Origin: Candidatus Cloacimonadota bacterium
GTDB taxonomy: Bacteria > Cloacimonadota > Cloacimonadia > JGIOTU-2
DNA: 34,639 nt
NCBI GenBank assembly: GCA_011043895.1
Contig: DRBZ01000004.1
Span: 1 to 34,639 of the forward strand
Direction: 5' to 3'
The position numbers and the translations under genes were made by a program. Shown here piece by piece: positions 1 through 34,639 of the stretch (the first letter of the stretch is position 1; each line of letters begins with the position of its first letter). The notes below the pieces were generated by a model. That model was given only the letters and a program-made list of their open reading frames with translations. It was not told where the DNA came from and ran no database searches.

Positions 1-2646
1 AAATTCGGCGTTTACTATACCCCGCGGGAAATCGTGCATTACATGTGCAAGCAGAGCCTAATCAATTACCTCTCTACCAAAGTAACTCAGGCATTCCTGC
101 CTGAGGTGATTAACCGCCAGGACATTGAAGACCTGATCGAAGTCGGGGAAATGATCACCGAGCATGAAGCCACGGCCCTTATCAAACAGGAAAAGATCAA
201 AAATGGCATCCAGAAATCCACGGAATATACTGCCCTGCTCTCCGACAGTATTCGCGAAAACGCTGAATTAATCGATAAGTGGCTGGCAGACATCACCGTC
301 TGCGACCCGGCCGTGGGTTCCGGCGCCTTTCCCGTGGGTATGATGAACGAAATCGTGCGCGCAAGAAATGTGCTCTCGGTATTTTTGATAAATAAGAGTA
401 ACACAGGCATTCCTGCCTGTGATGAAACTAATAACACTCCCGCAAACAAGAATGATGATGTTACCATTACCCACCGTAACCTGCCCCATTGGAAAAAGCC
501 TGGCGCTATTTATTGGATTACCTTTCGGCTTGCGGATTCTATACCTCAGGGAAAACTAAATGTGTGGAAAGCGGAACGAGATCATTGGAAAAGCAAACAT
601 CCCGAACCCTGGAGCGACGAAGAATGGAAAGAATATAATAAACGTTTTGGAGATCGTCTGGAAAAGTGGCTTGATGCGGGTCATGGTTCTTGCGCCTTGA
701 GAAAACCGAAAATCCGGGAAATTGTGAAGGAATGTATTCTTCGTTTCAACGGGGAGAGATTCCTGCTTCATGCTGGAGTCATCATGCCGAATCACGTCCA
801 TCTCCTTCTTGAGCCATTGGCAGGACATTCACTTTCTGAATTGCTAAAAGGAATTAAAGGTGCGAGTTCAAGAAGAATAAATCAGTTGTTAAACAAGACC
901 GGTCATAGATTTTGGATGGATGAATCCTATGACCATATCGTTCGCAGCGAAGCCCAGTATCAGCACTTTATTCGCTATATCACCGAAAACCCGATAAAAG
1001 CCAATTTATCAGAGAAACAGTATTGGGTATATGAAGAAGGTAGCACAGGCATTCCTACCTGTGAAGGTAACACAGGCATTCTTGCCTGTAATAAAATACA
1101 CACACAGACAAGAATGTCTGTGCCACGCTCAGATTATGAATTCAAACGCCGTTGCATTGAGCATTCCCTCTACGGCGTGGACATAGACCCCGGCGCAGTT
1201 GAAATTGCCAAACTAAGGCTCTGGCTGTCGTTGATGGTGGATGAGGAGGACATCAAGAACATCAAGCCGCTGCCGAATCTGGATTATAAGATCGTGTGCG
1301 GGAATTCGCTGCTGGGTGTGGAAAAGAACTTGTTCAACCACCAACTGTTTGCCGAGCTGGAACGCCTGAAACCGCTCTACTTCGACGAAACCAATCCCAG
1401 TAAAAAGCAGGAATACAAAAAACAGATCGATGACCTGATCAGCCAGATTACCAATGGTCATACCGAATTTGATTTTGAGGTGTATTTTTCCGAGGTGTTT
1501 CATGAAAAAGGCGGTTTTGATGTGGTGATTGCCAATCCGCCTTATGGCAATATCTTTACAAAAAAAGAAAAGGCGAATCTTCGTAAACTATTTATTGAAC
1601 TTCAGTTCAAAATAGATGCTTATTCAGTATTTATTCTTAAGGGAATTAGTTTAAACAAAGAAAATGGGTATCTAATATATATTATCCCAAGTACCTTCAT
1701 AGATAATTATTTTGAAGAAAATGTCAGAAAACAATTGCTTATTAAAAACAGCATTGAGCTAATTATTGAATTGGATGATAGCATATTTGATAGTGCTGTT
1801 GTACACTCAATGATTTTAGGTGTAAAGAAGCAAGTACCAGAAAAAAGCCATAAAGTGAGGACTGGTTATTCGATGGATTTCGTTTTTAACAAACAAGATA
1901 TTCCCAATGAGTATTTCTTGAAGCAGGATTACGCCATATTTTCAATAAGATCCTATCAGCATGCTGATCTTTTATTAAAATTAAAAAAAGATACTGTCAA
2001 TTTAGAAAAGATTATTGATATTAGACAGGCAATTAAATCAGGAAACGATAAAAAGTATATACATAGGAAAAAAATAAACAATTCATACAAACCCATAGTA
2101 GGCGGAAAGCATATCAAAAAATGGTCATTAGTTGATCCTAGGCTATATATTTTTTATGGGGATCATTTAGCATGCCCTCGCGATCCAAGAATATTTGAAC
2201 AACCAAAGATATTAATTAGAGAAGCTGGAAAAGAGATAACTGCTACTTATGACGAGAACGGTTATTATGTTATGTCATCATTGTATAATGCGATCCAGAT
2301 TGATGAAAAATATAGCTTAAAATATATATTAGCATTATTGAATTCTTGCTTGTTTCAATACTTGATGAGACTCAAAACATTTGATAAAACAAAAGGAGCT
2401 TTTACAAAAGCAAAGATATATCATTATTATGATCTTCCAGTAAAAAATATTGATAGCACTGTGCAGGGTAGATTTGTTGATATTGTCGACCAAATTCTTT
2501 CCATCACCAAAGACAAAGATTATCTGCAAAACCCCGCCAAACAGGCGCAGGTTAAGGAATACGAAAAACAAATCGACCAGATGGTCTACAAACTATATGG
2601 ACTCACGCCAGAGGAAATTAAAATTGTTGAAAGCTCGCAAAGATGA
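1..2646 (+). CDS. Type IIG (Eco57I/PglX-like) adenine-specific DNA methyltransferase / restriction enzyme, 5'-partial, with in-frame RAYT insertion
   Basis: Frame is open to base 1 (KFGVYYTPREIVHYMC), so the GTG at 34 is only the ORF-caller start. Motif I DPAVGSGAF, then YGVDIDPGAVEIAKLRLWLSL, then motif IV FDVVIANPPYG. C-terminal tail QIDQMVYKLYGLTPEEIKIVE. Confidence 0.9.
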   Translation, partial: KFGVYYTPREIVHYMCKQSLINYLSTKVTQAFLPEVINRQDIEDLIEVGEMITEHEATALIKQEKIKNGIQKSTEYTALLSDSIRENAELIDKWLADITVCDPAVGSGAFPVGMMNEIVRARNVLSVFLINKSNTGIPACDETNNTPANKNDDVTITHRNLPHWKKPGAIYWITFRLADSIPQGKLNVWKAERDHWKSKHPEPWSDEEWKEYNKRFGDRLEKWLDAGHGSCALRKPKIREIVKECILRFNGERFLLHAGVIMPNHVHLLLEPLAGHSLSELLKGIKGASSRRINQLLNKTGHRFWMDESYDHIVRSEAQYQHFIRYITENPIKANLSEKQYWVYEEGSTGIPTCEGNTGILACNKIHTQTRMSVPRSDYEFKRRCIEHSLYGVDIDPGAVEIAKLRLWLSLMVDEEDIKNIKPLPNLDYKIVCGNSLLGVEKNLFNHQLFAELERLKPLYFDETNPSKKQEYKKQIDDLISQITNGHTEFDFEVYFSEVFHEKGGFDVVIANPPYGNIFTKKEKANLRKLFIELQFKIDAYSVFILKGISLNKENGYLIYIIPSTFIDNYFEENVRKQLLIKNSIELIIELDDSIFDSAVVHSMILGVKKQVPEKSHKVRTGYSMDFVFNKQDIPNEYFLKQDYAIFSIRSYQHADLLLKLKKDTVNLEKIIDIRQAIKSGNDKKYIHRKKINNSYKPIVGGKHIKKWSLVDPRLYIFYGDHLACPRDPRIFEQPKILIREAGKEITATYDENGYYVMSSLYNAIQIDEKYSLKYILALLNSCLFQYLMRLKTFDKTKGAFTKAKIYHYYDLPVKNIDSTVQGRFVDIVDQILSITKDKDYLQNPAKQAQVKEYEKQIDQMVYKLYGLTPEEIKIVESSQR
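86..105. repeat. REP-like palindrome CTCAGGCA-TTCC-TGCCTGAG
   Basis: Perfect 8-bp arms, 4-nt loop. Same core as the palindromes flanking the RAYT. Confidence 0.75.
402..421. repeat. REP-like palindrome CACAGGCA-TTCC-TGCCTGTG, left flank of RAYT
   Basis: Perfect 8-bp arms, translated as NTGIPACD. Confidence 0.85.
1044..1063. repeat. REP-like palindrome CACAGGCA-TTCC-TACCTGTG, right flank of RAYT
   Basis: Same motif with one arm mismatch, translated as STGIPTCEG. Confidence 0.85.
1072..1089. repeat. REP-like palindrome ACAGGCA-TTCT-TGCCTGT
   Basis: Direct-orientation copy adjacent to the previous one, translated as NTGILACN. Confidence 0.85.
1103..1122. repeat. REP-like palindrome CACAGACA-AGAA-TGTCTGTG in inverted orientation
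   Basis: Reverse complement reads GGCACAGACATTCTTGTCTGTG, giving a BIME-like inverted arrangement. Confidence 0.75.
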
Positions 2647-5669: not shown

Positions 5670-5753
5670 GCTGGAGCGGGAGATTGACCAGATGGTCTAT
5701 CAACTCTACGGCCTGACATAGAAGGAGATACGCTTGTGGAGGGAAAAGAATGA
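5670..5753 (+). pseudogene. Relic of a Type IIG methyltransferase 3' end (tail copy 3)
   Basis: 31 nt GCTGGAGCGGGAGATTGACCAGATGGTCTAT identical to 4621-4651. Reads LEREIDQMVYQLYGLT*KEI with a nonsense codon and a 1-nt deletion. The restored frame ends ..IVEGKE* on ATGA with the next gene. Confidence 0.8.
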
Positions 5754-6292
5754 AATACAATCCGGACATCCATCATCGTCGATCGATTCGATTGCAGGGA
5801 TATGATTATTCATCATCCGGTGCGTATTTTGTAACCATGTGCACCAACAACCGGGAATGTTTGTTCGGGGAAATTGTGGCCGGGAAAACGGCATTGAATG
5901 ATGCGGGAAACATGGTTGTGCAATGGTATCATGAATTGGAAAACAAATTTCCCGATATACAACACGATGCATTTATATGTATGCCCAACCATGTTCATTT
6001 TATTGTTGCAAACATGCCCCCCGTCACCGTAGGGGCAGATCGATGTGTCTGCCCCAATAAAACGGGCGAACACGCAGATTCACACCTACATCGGGTGGTG
6101 CAATGGTTTAAAACAATGACCACCAATGAATATATTCGTGGTGTTAAACAAAACGGATGGCCGCCATTTCCCGGGAAATTATGGCAACGCAATTATTACG
6201 AACACATTATCCGCAATGAAAACGAATTAAATAACATCCGGCAATACATCATCAATAATCCAATAAATTGGCAATCGGATGAAAATTATTAA
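5750..6292 (+). CDS. RAYT / Y1_Tnp transposase (second copy, different subgroup)
   Basis: RRSIRLQGYDYSSSGAYFVTMCTNNRECLFGEI...CMPNHVHFIV (HUH)...WQRNYYEHIIRNENELNNIRQYIINNPINW. Confidence 0.88.
   Translation: MKYNPDIHHRRSIRLQGYDYSSSGAYFVTMCTNNRECLFGEIVAGKTALNDAGNMVVQWYHELENKFPDIQHDAFICMPNHVHFIVANMPPVTVGADRCVCPNKTGEHADSHLHRVVQWFKTMTTNEYIRGVKQNGWPPFPGKLWQRNYYEHIIRNENELNNIRQYIINNPINWQSDENY
6031..6056. repeat. REP-like palindrome GGGGCAGA-N8-TCTGCCCC inside the RAYT coding sequence
   Basis: Perfect 8-bp arms at 6032-6039 and 6048-6055, translated as VGADRCVCPN. Confidence 0.75.
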
Positions 6293-14414: not shown

Positions 14415-14512
14415 TGGCCGAGAGGGCAGGAATCGAACCTGCCATGGACGGTGTTATCCGCTCACTACTGGTTTTGAAGACCAGCTGGAACACCAGTTCC
14501 TTCCTCTCAACC
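14415..14512 (-). tRNA. selC: tRNA-Sec (anticodon TCA)
   Basis: Minus strand GGTTGAGAGG...CTGGT-CTTCAAA-ACCAG anticodon arm, long variable arm, GCAGG-TTCGATT-CCTGC T arm, ending CCA. Adjacent to selA/selB. Confidence 0.93.
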
Positions 14513-29446: not shown

Positions 29447-31657
29447 TTATTCGGTATGTTTTTGATCAAATTTGAATGTTCCATCCTTAAGGATTCGCAC
29501 TGCATGCTCAACAACTTCAGGATCGTATAAAATGCCTTTATTATCCTCAATTTCCTCGAGAGCGATCTCCATCCCGAGACTCTGTCTGTAGGGACGATCA
29601 TTTGCCATTGCTTCGACCACGTCAGCTACAGCAAGGATTCGCGCTTCGATGAGTGTATCTTCATTTTTCAAACCCTGTGGGTAACCACTGCCGTTAAATC
29701 TCTCGTGATGTTGACGTACAATATCAGCAACAGGCCATGGAAATTCCAAATCTTTTAGAAGTTCATACCCAACTTCAGGATGATTCTTTATAAGCTGCCA
29801 TTCATTGTCAGTGAGCATTTCGACTTTGTTCAGAACCTTGATCGGAACTTTGATCTTGCCGATATCATGCATAGTACCACCAATGCGGATTCCATTGATT
29901 TTATCTTCAGAAAGGTTCATCTCGTTTGCGATAGCCAGTGCAAGCTTTGCAACATTATGTTGATGACCAGCAGTATAGGGATCTCTAAGTTCAACAACAT
30001 GTGCCAGTACATTGACGGTATCCTCGATCAGTTTCTGCAAACGCTCATAGCTTTTTTTCAGTTCCCTCTCCGCCTGTTTGCGGTTTGTTATATCACGATA
30101 AATACCATATACAGCTACCTGTTTTCCTTCTATAATAATAGGTGTACCAAGAATTGAGACATCGATTATTGTTCCATCTTTTCGCATACGTTGTGTCTCA
30201 AGGCGAACTGTTTCTCCTTCGGCTATAGATTGGGTTATCTTATGTGCTTCATCCTTATAGTTATTCTCGGCTATTAACTCATCGATATTCTTGCCAATAG
30301 CCTCTTCCTGGCTGAATCCGAACATATCTATAAATGTTTGGTTTAACTGCAATACACGACTATCATTTGTAGCCACGACAATTGCTTCTGGTGAACTTTC
30401 AAAAAGTTGCTGGAAATAAGCTTTCTGTTCCTGAAGTGCCTTTTCTGCTTCTTTTCTATCAGTGATATCACGTCCTATACCTTGAAGATATAAGAGTTTT
30501 CCGCCATCAAAGACTGGGCGCATTTTTATCCAGAAAATCCTCTCGGTACCATCTTTTTTTACTATGCTAGTTTCAAATTCGACCGATTCACCTTTTAACG
30601 CCTTTTGATAATTTTCGATTGATTTCTTTCTATCTTCGTTAGCGATTATTTTTATTGATTGCTGGCCCTCTAGTTCCTCTTTGGAATAACCAAGTAGTTG
30701 CTCGAACATCTTATTAACAGAGATATATTTTCCCTTTTCGTCCGATATCCAGATAACATCATTTGCATTTTCAAAAAGATTTCTAAATTTTTCCTCACTT
30801 TTCTTCAGTGCTTCTTCAGATTGTTTACGTATAGTAATATCCCGAATGATACCCCAATAACCCATCATATTTCCTGCTTCATCCTTTTGAAGATAGGTTC
30901 GGCACTCCACTGGAAAGACAGTACCATCCTTGCGAAAATATTCCTTTTCATAAAGCTCAGAATATCCTTGCTTTTGAACCTGTGTTTTTATGATGTTAGT
31001 TTCATAATCATGCCATTTCTGTGGAGTTAGACTTCTGGTCTTCTTACCTATAAGTTCATCACGGCTATATCCTAATATTTTCTGAAAAGCTATATTGCAA
31101 TCTAATATTCTACCTTTTAAATCAGTTCTAACGGAACCATCACGCATATTTTCATAGAGAATGTGATATTGTTTTTCTGTAGAAATACGTGCTTGTTCTG
31201 CTTCTTTTCTCTGTTTCTCTTTCTGTTCGATTTCTTGCTGAAGAAGGATATTATTAGCAAGATCTTTAATGATTTCCATGAGCTGATTCACATCAACAGG
31301 TTTAAGAATAAATCCATGCACGCCGATCTCAATAGCCCTGAGGAAATAGTTCGTCTCTCCGTAGGCAGAAACGACCACAAATTTCGTGGCAGGTTCTATA
31401 TCTTTCATCTGTTCGATCATCTCAAGTCCATTTATAATCGGCATTTTTATGTCTGTCACAACAATATTTGGTTTGTATTTCTTAAATAACTCCAGCCCCT
31501 CCTGACCATTTTTTGCGATATACACATCTTTAATCTTACGTTTTAACATCGTGGAAACAGAGCGCAGAATAATCGTCTCATCTTCAACATACATTATGGA
31601 GATTGGTAAAAGCTTTTTTGTAGTAATACTTGTTCGATCAGAATTAGGAGAAGACAT
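29447..31657 (-). CDS. Response regulator with REC, three PAS domains and HD-GYP output
   Basis: MYVEDETIILRSV...VVTDIKMPIINGLEMI. PAS repeats (EKFRNLFENANDVIW). HVVELRDPYTAGHQHNVAKLA...GTMHDIGKIKVP...HHERFNGSGYPQGL. Confidence 0.9.
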   Translation of the reverse strand: MSSPNSDRTSITTKKLLPISIMYVEDETIILRSVSTMLKRKIKDVYIAKNGQEGLELFKKYKPNIVVTDIKMPIINGLEMIEQMKDIEPATKFVVVSAYGETNYFLRAIEIGVHGFILKPVDVNQLMEIIKDLANNILLQQEIEQKEKQRKEAEQARISTEKQYHILYENMRDGSVRTDLKGRILDCNIAFQKILGYSRDELIGKKTRSLTPQKWHDYETNIIKTQVQKQGYSELYEKEYFRKDGTVFPVECRTYLQKDEAGNMMGYWGIIRDITIRKQSEEALKKSEEKFRNLFENANDVIWISDEKGKYISVNKMFEQLLGYSKEELEGQQSIKIIANEDRKKSIENYQKALKGESVEFETSIVKKDGTERIFWIKMRPVFDGGKLLYLQGIGRDITDRKEAEKALQEQKAYFQQLFESSPEAIVVATNDSRVLQLNQTFIDMFGFSQEEAIGKNIDELIAENNYKDEAHKITQSIAEGETVRLETQRMRKDGTIIDVSILGTPIIIEGKQVAVYGIYRDITNRKQAERELKKSYERLQKLIEDTVNVLAHVVELRDPYTAGHQHNVAKLALAIANEMNLSEDKINGIRIGGTMHDIGKIKVPIKVLNKVEMLTDNEWQLIKNHPEVGYELLKDLEFPWPVADIVRQHHERFNGSGYPQGLKNEDTLIEARILAVADVVEAMANDRPYRQSLGMEIALEEIEDNKGILYDPEVVEHAVRILKDGTFKFDQKHTE

Positions 31658-31790
31658 TTAATCCTTTCTAAACAAATCCAGATATAGGAATTTAAAAACT
31701 ACTTTTCTTTAAATCTACTGATAACATCACTATTCGATGATCAGGTTTTTAGTTTTCGCAGTAAAAATTTTTGATTTTCTTTGTCAACCA

Positions 31791-32114
31791 ATTCGTCTTA
31801 ATCATGCATACCCCCAAAATTTTTCAGGGGCATGGGACTTTTTCATTATTACACAAAAACAACCTAATAATAACAAAAGATGAGGGATGGTGAATATCGT
31901 TGCAAAGTACTAGCATAACAATGATTCACAAAGTATGGGAGACCCTTCTCCGCCTGCCGGCGGATCAGGGTGATAAAAGTATTTTATGTTTAATTTTCAG
32001 ATTTACTGGAAAGTAATTTTCCAACCAAAATATATCGCAAACCCTTTATCTATAGTAATCCTCAGAAGTCACCTCCAAATTTTTTTTGGGGGGGTATCCC
32101 TGATTCGTCTTAAT
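31791..32114. mobile_element. MITE-like non-autonomous element (31803-32102) flanked by a 12-bp direct repeat
   Basis: ATTCGTCTTAAT at 31791-31802 and 32103-32114. Inverted ends CATGCATACCCCC / CAGGGATACCCCC. No coding capacity. Confidence 0.65.
31942..31971. repeat. Composite hairpin ACCCT-tc-TCCGCC-TGCC-GGCGGA-tc-AGGGT
   Basis: 6-bp inner and 5-bp outer perfect stems with a symmetric 2-nt internal loop, inside the MITE-like element. Confidence 0.75.
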
Positions 32115-32162
32115 TTTTCAAAATTCATTTATTATGGATAGTATTGGTATATGTCACATGCC

Positions 32163-32619
32163 GCGCCGATGGCGCTCCATATTTTTTTCCTTTTCTGTTG
32201 CGCTTACGCACAACATTAAAATATTTCGTTCCTACGGAACTTATGTTTATGATTTCCATGTTTCATCGTTCTCTGCAGATGGAGCTGATTTGATACTCCA
32301 CATTATGGATATTTCGTTGCTACAGAACTAAAAAATTCAAAACATTTTTCATTATTCCATATAGCATCAAAGCATCATAGATGCGACATATATTTTCAAA
32401 GACACCACAAAATATTCTGTTCCTACGAAACTTATCATAATTTAATTCAATTTCCAATCTTTCTACAAAGCATCGGAGATGCGTTATGTTTTACCCTGAG
32501 GTGTAAGCATCATGGCTTCAATAAATAAATTCCATTATAGCGCCAGAGGTACGATATATCCTTCCCGAATGCGTGAGCGTTCGGTATAGTCCAAAGGACT
32601 ATCAAAGCACCAAAGGTAC
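32163..32619. repeat. Array of about 12 mini-hairpins (mostly 5-bp stem, 3-nt loop)
   Basis: GCGCC-gat-GGCGC, GTTCC-tac-GGAAC, GCATC-ata-GATGC, GCATC-gga-GATGC, AGTCC-aaa-GGACT, plus degraded GTTCC-tac-GAAAC, GCACC-aaa-GGTAC, GCGCC-aga-GGTAC and others. Confidence 0.75.
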
Positions 32620-32629
32620 GGCATGTTAA

Positions 32630-34639
32630 TCAAACCTCAATTGTGAACCTCACTCCATCATCAATATTCTGTACATCAATTCTTCCCTTCATGTTCTCGA
32701 TCAGCATCTTGCTCATATATAAACCCAATCCAGTTCCCTCACTCTGATGCTTTGTGGTAAAATATGGATCAAAGATTTTATCAATAATATCTTCCGGAAT
32801 CTGACCACCATTATTCTCTATAGTCACACGTGAAGTAAAATCTTCGTCAGTCGTTTTTTCAAGTATGATCTTTACAAACGGCTCTTTGGGATTTGTCTTC
32901 TTAATCGCATCCTTAGCATTGTTCAGAATATTCAGCAGAACCTGCGTAAATTCATTGGAGAATCCTTCGATCTCACATTCTGCTTTAAGATCAGCTTCTA
33001 TCGTAATAGAATTATTCTTGAAACTACTCTCAAGAAAAGAAATGGTTTTTCCAATCGTCTTATTGATCTGGAATTTTTCCTTTAATCTGCTTGGCATAAA
33101 GAAATTCCTAAAATCATCGATGGTATGTGACATATATTCGAGTTGCTGCATGGTATTTGAAATGGATTCTCGAAGATATTCCTCATTCAATTCACCATAT
33201 TTGAATGCCTCTTCAATATCCTGCACAATAGCTCCTACTGCAGTGAGTGGCTGCCTCCATTGATGCGCAATATTACTTATCATCTCTCCCATTGCTGCCT
33301 GACGTGACTGTTTGATGAGAAGATGGTCCTTTTCGCGTAGTTCTTTCACCTGTTCCTCAACCTTCTGCTCCAGCTCATTACTAAGCTGCTCAAGCTTGAT
33401 ATTTGATTGACGAATTTTCATCTCAGTTTCTATTCTTGAGGTGATATCCTGAAGCAGCACAAGCTGAGAGTCCACTCCTTCCCATTGAACATGCGTAGTC
33501 TTAATATCCAGATAAAGTTTTTTACCATCTTTACGATGAAGTTCTACCTCACCAGAATCTCCAACTTTGATCAGATCCTCATATAACGTGCCTTCCAGCT
33601 CCCTTTCAGTGCTCTCAAATATACTGAGTGCTTGCGGATTTGCATAAGAAATTTTCTTTGTATTGTCAAGGATGATAATACCATGAATGCTGCTCTCCAC
33701 AATATTGATGAAGCTCTTCTGATATCTTTTCGCTTCAATTTCAGCAACTTTCTCGTAGGTAATATCCTCATGGCTGCCAATGACCCGAAGGGGCTTGTCC
33801 TCTTCATCCCACTCAATGACTTTACCCTTGCTTCTGATCCATCTGTACCCGCCGAACTTTGTCTTCATTCTGAATTCGTCAAAGTAAGACTCCATGCCAG
33901 ATTGAATAAAATCATCTACATTCATTTCTGCTGATGCTCTATCTTCTGGATGAAGGAGTTCCGCCCATTTCTTCATTGTTGGTTCAAATTCCTTCGGTTT
34001 ATAATCCAGCATTGTGTAATATCGGTCACTAAATTCCAACACATCTTCCTTAATATTCCATTCCCAGATACCTTCAGTTGTTGCTTCGAGTATTTCACGA
34101 AATTTTGCTCTGCTCTTAACAAGATCTTCTTGAGACTTTGCTCGTTTTATCGCCAGAGCAATTGCTTCAGAAACAAAAGTGAGAATACCGACATCTTCCT
34201 GTGAATAACAGGCTGGATCATCATAACTTTGCAGCGCAATTATGCCAATCGTCTCTTTCTCTACAATGAGTGGAACACCCATCCATACTTTTGATGGTGT
34301 ACCAATGATTTCCACTTTACCTTCCTGAGACATTTTCTTTATTTCCTCCCAGCCTACCAGCAGCGGCTTAGCAGTTTCGATAACGTATTTAGCGAGCGTC
34401 TTGCCAGCAGGAAATGTTTCAAATCTATCTTTCTTATCCACATCATAGGGAAGCGAAATGGTGTCGGTTTTCTCATCATAGAGCGCTACGGAGAAATTAG
34501 TGGTGTCCATTACCTTTCCTAGCAGGATGCGAATTTTATCGCACAAATCGGTCAGATCGAAGGTTCGGTTGAGTGCTTCGGAGATTTTAAGGAGTGTTTC
34601 CTGTTTCAGTTGCATCTTCTTCCGCTCGGAAATATTACG
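32630..34639 (-). CDS. GAF/PAS sensor histidine kinase, 5'-partial (runs off the window)
   Basis: GAF-like N-terminus, two PAS domains, H-box SNIAHQWRQPLTAV, HATPase EGTGLGLYMSKML. Frame stays open upstream (RNISERKKMQLKQ) to 34639. Confidence 0.9.
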   Translation of the reverse strand, partial: RNISERKKMQLKQETLLKISEALNRTFDLTDLCDKIRILLGKVMDTTNFSVALYDEKTDTISLPYDVDKKDRFETFPAGKTLAKYVIETAKPLLVGWEEIKKMSQEGKVEIIGTPSKVWMGVPLIVEKETIGIIALQSYDDPACYSQEDVGILTFVSEAIALAIKRAKSQEDLVKSRAKFREILEATTEGIWEWNIKEDVLEFSDRYYTMLDYKPKEFEPTMKKWAELLHPEDRASAEMNVDDFIQSGMESYFDEFRMKTKFGGYRWIRSKGKVIEWDEEDKPLRVIGSHEDITYEKVAEIEAKRYQKSFINIVESSIHGIIILDNTKKISYANPQALSIFESTERELEGTLYEDLIKVGDSGEVELHRKDGKKLYLDIKTTHVQWEGVDSQLVLLQDITSRIETEMKIRQSNIKLEQLSNELEQKVEEQVKELREKDHLLIKQSRQAAMGEMISNIAHQWRQPLTAVGAIVQDIEEAFKYGELNEEYLRESISNTMQQLEYMSHTIDDFRNFFMPSRLKEKFQINKTIGKTISFLESSFKNNSITIEADLKAECEIEGFSNEFTQVLLNILNNAKDAIKKTNPKEPFVKIILEKTTDEDFTSRVTIENNGGQIPEDIIDKIFDPYFTTKHQSEGTGLGLYMSKMLIENMKGRIDVQNIDDGVRFTIEV

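What the first reader, a model, noticed from the sequence alone, without database searches (positions are those of the whole stretch)
32163..32619. Array of mini-hairpins with conserved shape but different sequences
Seen: about 12 units in 457 bp, each about 13 nt with 5-bp stem and 3-nt loop: GCGCC/GGCGC (32163), GTTCC/GGAAC (32228), GTTGC/AGAAC (32316, decayed), GCATC/GATGC (32372), GTTCC/GAAAC (32419), GCATC/GATGC (32470), GCGCC/GGTAC (32540), AGTCC/GGACT (32588), GCACC/GGTAC (32607). Longer ones are TGCG/CGCA (32200), TTACCC/GTGTAA (32491) and CGAATGC/GCGTTCG (32566). Several are followed by a T/A-rich 'ATAT' or 'TTATG' tail. At least four stem classes recur, some mutated on one arm. It begins about 50 bp after the MITE-like element and runs up to the kinase stop codon. 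It is not a CRISPR: units lack a fixed repeat sequence. It might be an accretion site for tiny palindromic elements, a nested terminator/attenuator, or a structured RNA.
Basis: seen in the sequence. Interest (0 to 1): 0.62.

Follow-up and report, generated by a model that had tools for sequence, protein, structure and literature searches.

The report
Orphan array of transposase-linked mini-hairpins
The string of tiny hairpins is a worn-out cluster of repeat units that, in related bacteria, sit on both sides of a single-strand-DNA transposase gene of a type previously said to have no such repeats, so it links an unexplained enzyme family to its probable DNA target.

Summary
Window 32163-32619 has five perfect 5-bp/3-nt hairpins against 0.63 in shuffles (maximum 4 of 2000), plus decayed and longer ones at the stated places. 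They are not unrelated palindromes. They are copies, in both orientations, of one directional unit ("HB"): linker ..TACnnATATnTC, a 5-bp stem that varies freely but keeps pairing, a loop such as TAC, then TT. The three longer hairpins ("HA") sit 8-13 nt from an HB, as a second hairpin of the same unit.

The unit occurs across Bacteroidota and in the window's own phylum (one relative has 79 exact copies). HB hairpins directly bracket genes for a Y1 (HUH) transposase of "subclass 1.2": both sides in 22 of 68 genes versus 1 of 318 control genes, inverted, same stem on both sides in 13 of 22 (1.9 expected). Published work says this subclass has no such repeats. In the window's genus, two relatives carry the gene inside such an array, a third keeps the array with the gene deleted, and a fourth has the window's kinase-regulator locus without any array.

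Best reading: a decayed, transposase-less cluster of REP-like non-autonomous units. Recognition and mobility by the enzyme are inferred, not shown.

The parts
32143..32182 (+). HB unit 1: linker ACATGCC + GCGCC-GAT-GGCGC (hairpin 32163-32175); left end of the array
   Evidence: model R1 17.3 bits
32196..32216 (.). HA hairpin 1 TGTTGCG-CTTA-CGCACAACA (bulged), ending just before the AT-rich linker of HB unit 2
   Evidence: sequence; same HA-linker-HB layout in G001 and G018 arrays
32208..32247 (+). HB unit 2: ATATTTC + GTTCC-TAC-GGAAC (hairpin 32228-32240), intact
   Evidence: model R1 35.9 bits, E 5.7e-6
32296..32335 (+). HB unit 3, decayed: ATATTTC + GTTGC-TAC-AGAAC (32316-32328)
   Evidence: model R1 10.8 bits; repeat family D2
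32365..32404 (-). HB unit 4: hairpin GCATC-ATA-GATGC (32372-32384), linker GACATAT on its right
   Evidence: model R1 30.0 bits
32399..32438 (+). HB unit 5, one mismatch: GTTCC-TAC-GAAAC (32419-32431)
   Evidence: model R1 19.4 bits
32463..32502 (-). HB unit 6: GCATC-GGA-GATGC (32470-32482)
   Evidence: model R1 19.4 bits
32491..32506 (.). HA hairpin 2 TTACCC-TGAG-GTGTAA, 8 nt from HB unit 6 on its linker side
   Evidence: sequence
32533..32572 (-). HB unit 7, decayed: GCGCC-AGA-GGTAC (32540-32552)
   Evidence: model R1 11.7 bits
32565..32584 (.). HA hairpin 3 CCGAATGC-GTGA-GCGTTCGG, 12 nt from HB unit 7
   Evidence: the same HB-HA-HB composite at G000:C86 (L046)
32586..32602 (.). 7-bp hairpin ATAGTCC-AAA-GGACTAT, not assigned to HB or HA
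32600..32639 (-). HB unit 8: GCACC-AAA-GGTAC (32607-32619), linker GGCATGTT; right end of the array. CGGCATG here is complementary to CATGCCG at the left end.
   Evidence: model R1 19.9 bits
32630..34615 (-). PAS/GAF histidine kinase just upstream of the array (the array follows its stop codon)
   Evidence: Pfam
29447..31657 (-). Response regulator / PAS / HD_5 protein downstream; with the kinase it defines the locus that is array-free in G003
   Evidence: Pfam; synteny

Best explanation
The array is a decayed, transposase-less cluster of non-autonomous REP-like DNA repeats. Each full unit has two hairpins: a longer HA hairpin, an AT-rich linker, and a 5-bp/3-nt HB hairpin. Such units are the flanking structures, and probably the substrates, of Y1 (HUH) single-strand transposases of subclass 1.2, relatives of the IS200/IS605 TnpA. 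Shown: the dispersed conserved unit, its inverted bracketing of the gene, shared stems on both sides, co-occurrence with the gene, an array-free orthologous locus, and a sister array that has lost its gene. Inferred: the enzyme binds the HB hairpin mainly by shape, uses the conserved linker bases as a guide or cleavage signal, moves units through single-stranded DNA, and the units then mutate freely once the enzyme is gone.
For: Unit conserved across phyla: exact ATATTTNGTTCCTACGGAAC in 109 stretches of GTDB contigs; 79 exact 13-mers in G018, 0 reversed controls. Sites chosen by linker only are followed by a perfect 5-3-5 hairpin in 42 of 93 cases, 14 with a stem other than GTTCC, versus 0 of 21 on reversed sequence. 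TnpA homologue at E<=1e-25 in 37 of 40 genomes picked for the motif, against 36 of 118 genomes drawn evenly from the phylum of a Flavobacterium host; p = 1.2e-12 with the shared genome removed. In 105 genomes of the own phylum, model and gene go together, p = 2.9e-4. Bracketing: 5' 29/68, 3' 35/68, both 22/68 genes versus 7, 17 and 1 of 318 control ORFs; identical stems 13/22 versus 1.85 expected. Genes from the even draw, not chosen by the motif: 8, 8 and 4 of 20. G018: units of the same layout as its dispersed arrays flank its interrupted tnpA. Same genus: gene inside the array in G001 and G006, array with only the last codons of the gene in G004, orthologous kinase-regulator locus without array in G003. 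Active-site residues HUH, Y and Q are intact in all 68 proteins collected, and K, W, the second H of HH and E, not fixed by the collecting filter, are invariant. HB clusters by TnpA clade: 13 changes versus 18.8 shuffled, at most 1 of 500.
Against: No subclass-1.2 gene was found in the window's own genome, which is only 65% complete. Mobility, cleavage and target sites are not shown; no clean HB-only empty site with a target duplication was defined. 22 of 68 TnpA genes show no HB-type hairpin within 100 bp, many having other hairpins. Seven of 28 genomes with the model lack a detectable gene. The motif-bearing set and the even draw differ in lineage make-up. The array-free G003 locus could also reflect loss there.
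Confidence: 0.82

Rival explanations
1. The hairpins are kept for RNA: a chain of weak terminators, attenuators or mRNA-stabilising stem-loops at the 3' end of the kinase transcript, with the link to transposases only historical.
For: The array lies just after the kinase stop codon. RNA of the minus strand folds better than shuffles, z -4.56. Seven terminator-like matches in 31600-32700 versus 0.5 expected, four of them at three array hairpins.
Against: Units lie in both orientations, only some have T runs, stems are 5 bp and several have decayed on one arm, and the orthologous locus in G003 has no array. REP elements can also act secondarily on mRNA, so this is compatible as a side effect.
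Confidence: 0.15
2. Classical REP elements moved by a RAYT (TnpA class 2, REP-associated tyrosine transposase).
For: The window and genome encode RAYT-like proteins (5750-6292, and one fused in 1-2646).
Against: No GTAG/GTGG foot next to the hairpins. The RAYT at 5750-6292 carries a GTAG-type palindrome of a different kind. HB hairpins bracket class 1.2 genes instead.
Confidence: 0.05
3. Chance cluster of short palindromes in AT-rich intergenic DNA.
For: Short hairpins are common in AT-rich DNA; with loops of 3-6 nt the excess is modest (p 0.065).
Against: 5 versus 0.63 for 3-nt loops, a foreign covariance model concentrates here, and the flanks are conserved across phyla.
Confidence: 0.01

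Closest known systems
REP elements / REPINs and their RAYT (TnpA-REP) transposases
   Same: Short dispersed intergenic hairpins, often paired in inversion, several families, flanking a low-copy Y1 transposase gene (REPtron layout); PMC6006769, PMC8266576, PMC3116915.
   Different: No GTAG/GTGG foot; 5-bp stem of variable sequence behind a conserved ATATnTC linker; two-hairpin HA-HB unit; the linked enzyme is class 1.2, not class 2.
IS200/IS605 insertion sequences (IS608, ISDra2)
   Same: Y1 HUH transposase with YxxxQ; nearest solved structures are ISDra2- and IS608-type transposases; NCBIfam IS200/IS605; gene between hairpins.
   Different: Hairpins at the two sides are inverted copies of one hairpin, the gene copy number is low, and hairpin units vastly outnumber genes.
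TnpA subclass 1.2 (PMC6006769)
   Same: Signature Y---Q--HH, about 150 aa, occurrence in Bacteroidetes.
   Different: That paper lists 'no' REP sequences and no IS properties for it; here flanking and dispersed hairpins are found.
TnpA subclass 2.6 / RAYT group 5 'atypical secondary structures' of Bacteroidetes (PMC6006769)
   Same: Bacteroidetes; flanked by non-GTAG hairpins that recur in the genome.
   Different: Different protein motif (YIH[QN]NP); its hairpins were not compared here.

Membership tests
REP elements of RAYTs | GTAG or GTGG tetranucleotide at the foot of the hairpin | tested here: not met
   Base profile of 349 foreign copies shows ATATnTC before the stem and TT after it; tnpA-flanking copies likewise
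REP elements of RAYTs | Many intergenic copies in one genome | tested here: met
   79 exact copies in G018; 19 of 20 sampled clusters lie clear of the predicted genes, one touches a predicted ORF start. The own genome has few copies.
REP elements of RAYTs | Flank a class 2 (YxxNP) transposase gene | tested here: not met
   Bracketed genes carry Y..NQ..HH. Class 2 genes were not surveyed systematically.
IS200/IS605 family | Y1 HUH transposase with catalytic Tyr and Q | tested here: met
   H.H, Y and Q in 68 related proteins, fixed by the collecting filter; NF033573 72.6 bits, cutoff 55. Holds for relatives; no such gene in the window.
IS200/IS605 family | Subterminal hairpins with guide and cleavage tetranucleotides | tested here: inconclusive
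   Hairpins and a conserved 5' linker are present; cleavage sites unknown
TnpA subclass 1.2 system | Y---Q--HH signature in the linked protein | tested here: met
   Y, Q and the first H were fixed by the collecting filter; the second H is invariant without being fixed
TnpA subclass 1.2 system | The transposase acts on the hairpins | not testable with these tools
   Needs biochemistry or genetics
CRISPR array | Fixed repeat with regular spacing | tested here: not met
   No family beyond 3-4 loosely similar copies, irregular spacing
Rfam RNA families | Match at gathering score | tested here: not met
   Only tRNA-Sec in the window

The most novel reading that the evidence does not exclude
Subclass 1.2 TnpA defines a further kind of hairpin-dispersing Y1 transposase system beside IS200/IS605 and RAYT/REP. 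It recognises a two-hairpin unit by shape plus linker, so stem sequences drift freely while pairing is kept, and it seeds intergenic hairpin arrays across Bacteroidota, the window's phylum and neighbouring phyla.
Probability: 0.6. Interest if true: 0.75.

Novelty: new variant of a known kind. Interest (0 to 1): 0.62.

Why it matters
Subclass 1.2 Y1 transposases were described as close to IS200/IS605 but without IS properties and without REP sequences (PMC6006769). Linking them to a defined hairpin unit gives them a probable substrate that can be tested in vitro. It also explains a very widespread but apparently undescribed class of intergenic repeats in Bacteroidota and relatives, and offers a natural experiment in recognition by DNA shape rather than sequence.

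Tried and rejected
DNA similarity search of the array in its own genome gave only weak hits, and the 13-mer with 3 mismatches was not above control: the hits looked at lie mostly in long open frames; the copies are too few and too decayed for that test. Direct text search for the motif in papers found only unrelated papers. Flavo-1 RNA (Rfam) appears in 2 of 18 foreign loci but does not overlap the hairpins. Remnant of tnpA inside the window array: none (the better hits are the RAYT-like genes). Orientation of the G018 copies versus GC skew or neighbouring genes: no clear rule, local skew too noisy. The 100% pairing of alignment A1 is circular because copies were picked for perfect stems; the linker-only test replaces it. 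Adjacency of elements to Y1 genes is absent in G008, G012 and G014 at the thresholds used.

Full report
WHAT IS THERE. Five perfect 5-bp/3-nt hairpins stand against 0.63 in dinucleotide shuffles, maximum 4 in 2000. Aligning the hairpins with their flanks shows that they are one directional unit in two orientations. Read in its own direction the unit (HB) is an AT-rich linker ending ATATnTC (or ATGCC), a 5-bp stem closed by C-G, a loop (TAC, TAT, GAT, TCT, TTT) and TT. Plus-strand units start at 32163, 32228, 32316 and 32419; minus-strand units at 32372, 32470, 32540 and 32607. The three longer hairpins (HA, near 32196-32216, 32491-32506, 32565-32584) each lie 8-13 nt from the linker side of an HB. 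The two ends of the array carry complementary CATGCCG and CGGCATG.

THE UNIT ELSEWHERE. An exact search for ATATTTNGTTCCTACGGAAC over GTDB contigs found 109 stretches, mostly Bacteroidota (many Flavobacterium), also Chlorobiota and Ignavibacteriales, and a few bins labelled Fibrobacterota, Brocadiaceae and Verrucomicrobiales. In relatives of the window's genome the 13-mer occurs 79 times in G018, in arrays with 87-88 bp periods, with no reversed-control hit. G018's chromosome is 2,246,820 bases, which from memory is that of Cloacimonas acidaminivorans, so the window is probably from Cloacimonadota; I could not confirm this. In 349 foreign copies the linker is conserved (A .90, T .85, A .87, T .92; the rule that collected them favours these letters) and the stem takes many sequences, against 107 copies on reversed sequence by the same loose rule. 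The test that is not circular: sites chosen by linker alone are followed by a perfect 5-3-5 hairpin in 42 of 93 cases, 14 with a stem other than GTTCC, against 0 of 21 on reversed sequence.

INDEPENDENT MODEL. A covariance model from 56 foreign copies has its eight best hits in the window in or at the edge of this region. In the own genome it also marks C20 and C86. C86 repeats the HB-HA-HB composite seen at the right end of the window array.

LINK TO A TRANSPOSASE. In the same genus, G001 and G006 carry the array around a Y1 transposase gene with a 153-codon open frame. A GCACC hairpin precedes the start codon by 18 nt and another follows the stop codon, inverted, linkers facing the gene. The protein has DHIH and YIKNQKEHH, the signature given for TnpA subclass 1.2 in PMC6006769. 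It is called IS200/IS605 by NCBIfam and its nearest solved relatives are ISDra2- and IS608-type transposases. That paper states that subclass 1.2 has no REP sequences and does not share IS properties. No follow-up on it was found in the held library.

TESTS OF THE LINK. (1) Of 40 genomes chosen only for the motif, 38 have a homologue at E<=0.001 and 37 at 1e-25. In an even draw of 118 genomes from the phylum of one Flavobacterium host, 36 have one; Fisher p 1.2e-12. In that draw the two genomes with many motif copies (26 and 17; the first is the host itself) both have the gene, and in the other a motif copy lies about a dozen bases from the gene. (2) In 105 genomes of the own phylum: model and gene 21, model only 7, gene only 27, neither 50; p 2.9e-4. 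(3) Of 68 non-redundant genes, 29 have a GC-rich perfect 5/3 hairpin within 80 bp of the start, 35 within 80 bp of the stop, 22 both, against 7, 17 and 1 of 318 control ORFs, and about 0.5 in shuffled flanks. With any hairpin of 5 bp or more within 100 bp the figures are 54, 59 and 50 of 68 against 59, 87 and 21 of 318. (4) The nearest stems on the two sides are identical in 13 of 22 genes; 1.85 expected, maximum 7 of 5000. (5) Twenty genes from the even draw, not selected by the motif, give 8, 8 and 4; p 1.7e-7, 2.0e-5 and 4.4e-5. (6) On a tree of the 68 proteins the HB type needs 13 changes against 18.8 shuffled, and the window's genus falls in a clade that is mostly HB-flanked and mostly from motif-bearing genomes of other lineages. 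(7) In G018 the units beside its tnpA (one in-frame TAG) have the same linker and HA hairpin as its dispersed arrays. The flanks of the genes read ATATGTC[GCTCC..GGAGC]TT and the like, the same as the array units. In the 68 proteins HUH, K, W, Y, Q, HH and E are invariant; the collecting filter fixed H.H, Y, Q and the first H of HH, not the others.

GAIN AND DECAY. In G003, same genus, with no subclass 1.2 gene at 1e-25 and no model hit, the kinase (55% identity) and regulator (66%) lie side by side with roughly 200 bp between them and no array or MITE, against 972 bp in the window. In G004 the array sits next to the same neighbour gene as in G001 and G006, but of the transposase only the last codons (..ERYIFQ-stop) remain. 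In the window there is no remnant at all, no such gene in the 65% of the genome held, and four of the eight HB stems are not perfectly paired, as expected for units no longer renewed.

HOW IT PROBABLY WORKS. Established for IS608 and ISDra2 (PMC6006769): Y1 transposases bind small hairpins in single-stranded DNA and use bases 5' of the foot as guides. By analogy (inference) TnpA 1.2 binds HB by shape, uses the conserved linker as guide or cut site, and moves HA-HB units through single-stranded DNA, leaving inverted and tandem arrays between genes. The free variation of stem letters with kept pairing fits recognition of shape. A side role of the array in the kinase transcript is possible: minus-strand RNA folds at z -4.56, and three array hairpins resemble weak terminators.

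LIMITS. Association is not action. The covariation count on alignment A1 is circular and not used. E-values of the model are rough and its filters strict. Genome draws differ in lineage and relatedness. The own genome is incomplete. Some subscription literature is not in the library, so an earlier description of these repeats cannot be excluded.

Noticed in passing
window 1-2646 (+): Eco57I/TaqI_C-type restriction-modification protein (881 aa, open at the 5' end) with an in-frame Y1_Tnp/RAYT-like domain at residues about 237-339, flanked by repeated TGIP.C peptides that look like translated repeats.
   Followed up: partly
window 5750-6292 (+): 180-aa RAYT-like protein (YIINNP) whose variable middle is encoded by a GTAG-type palindrome GTAGGGGCAGATCGATGTGTCTGCCCC, as described for TnpA subclass 2.4.
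   Followed up: partly
window 31791-32114: MITE-like element of about 300 bp, near-inverted ends ATACCCCCaaaattttt / aaattttttttGGGGGGGTAT, between 12-bp direct repeats ATTCGTCTTAAT; absent from the orthologous locus in G003.
   Followed up: partly
window 14416-14512 (-): Selenocysteine tRNA gene (Rfam RF01852).
   Followed up: no
L208, L209, L210 (G008, G026, G012): A sister clade of these transposases is bracketed by other hairpins (AACCGTTTCAACGGTT, CCCACGATTAAAATCGTGGG), with the stop codon inside the hairpin; the HA type resembles them.
   Followed up: partly
L077 2644-2719, L099 3779-3878: Flavo-1 RNA hits a few hundred bases from HB arrays in two Flavobacterium loci.
   Followed up: no
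L297 (G018:C1:802663-803106): tnpA of subclass 1.2 interrupted by one TAG in the genome with the most HB copies; a larger transposase-like ORF starts just downstream.
   Followed up: no
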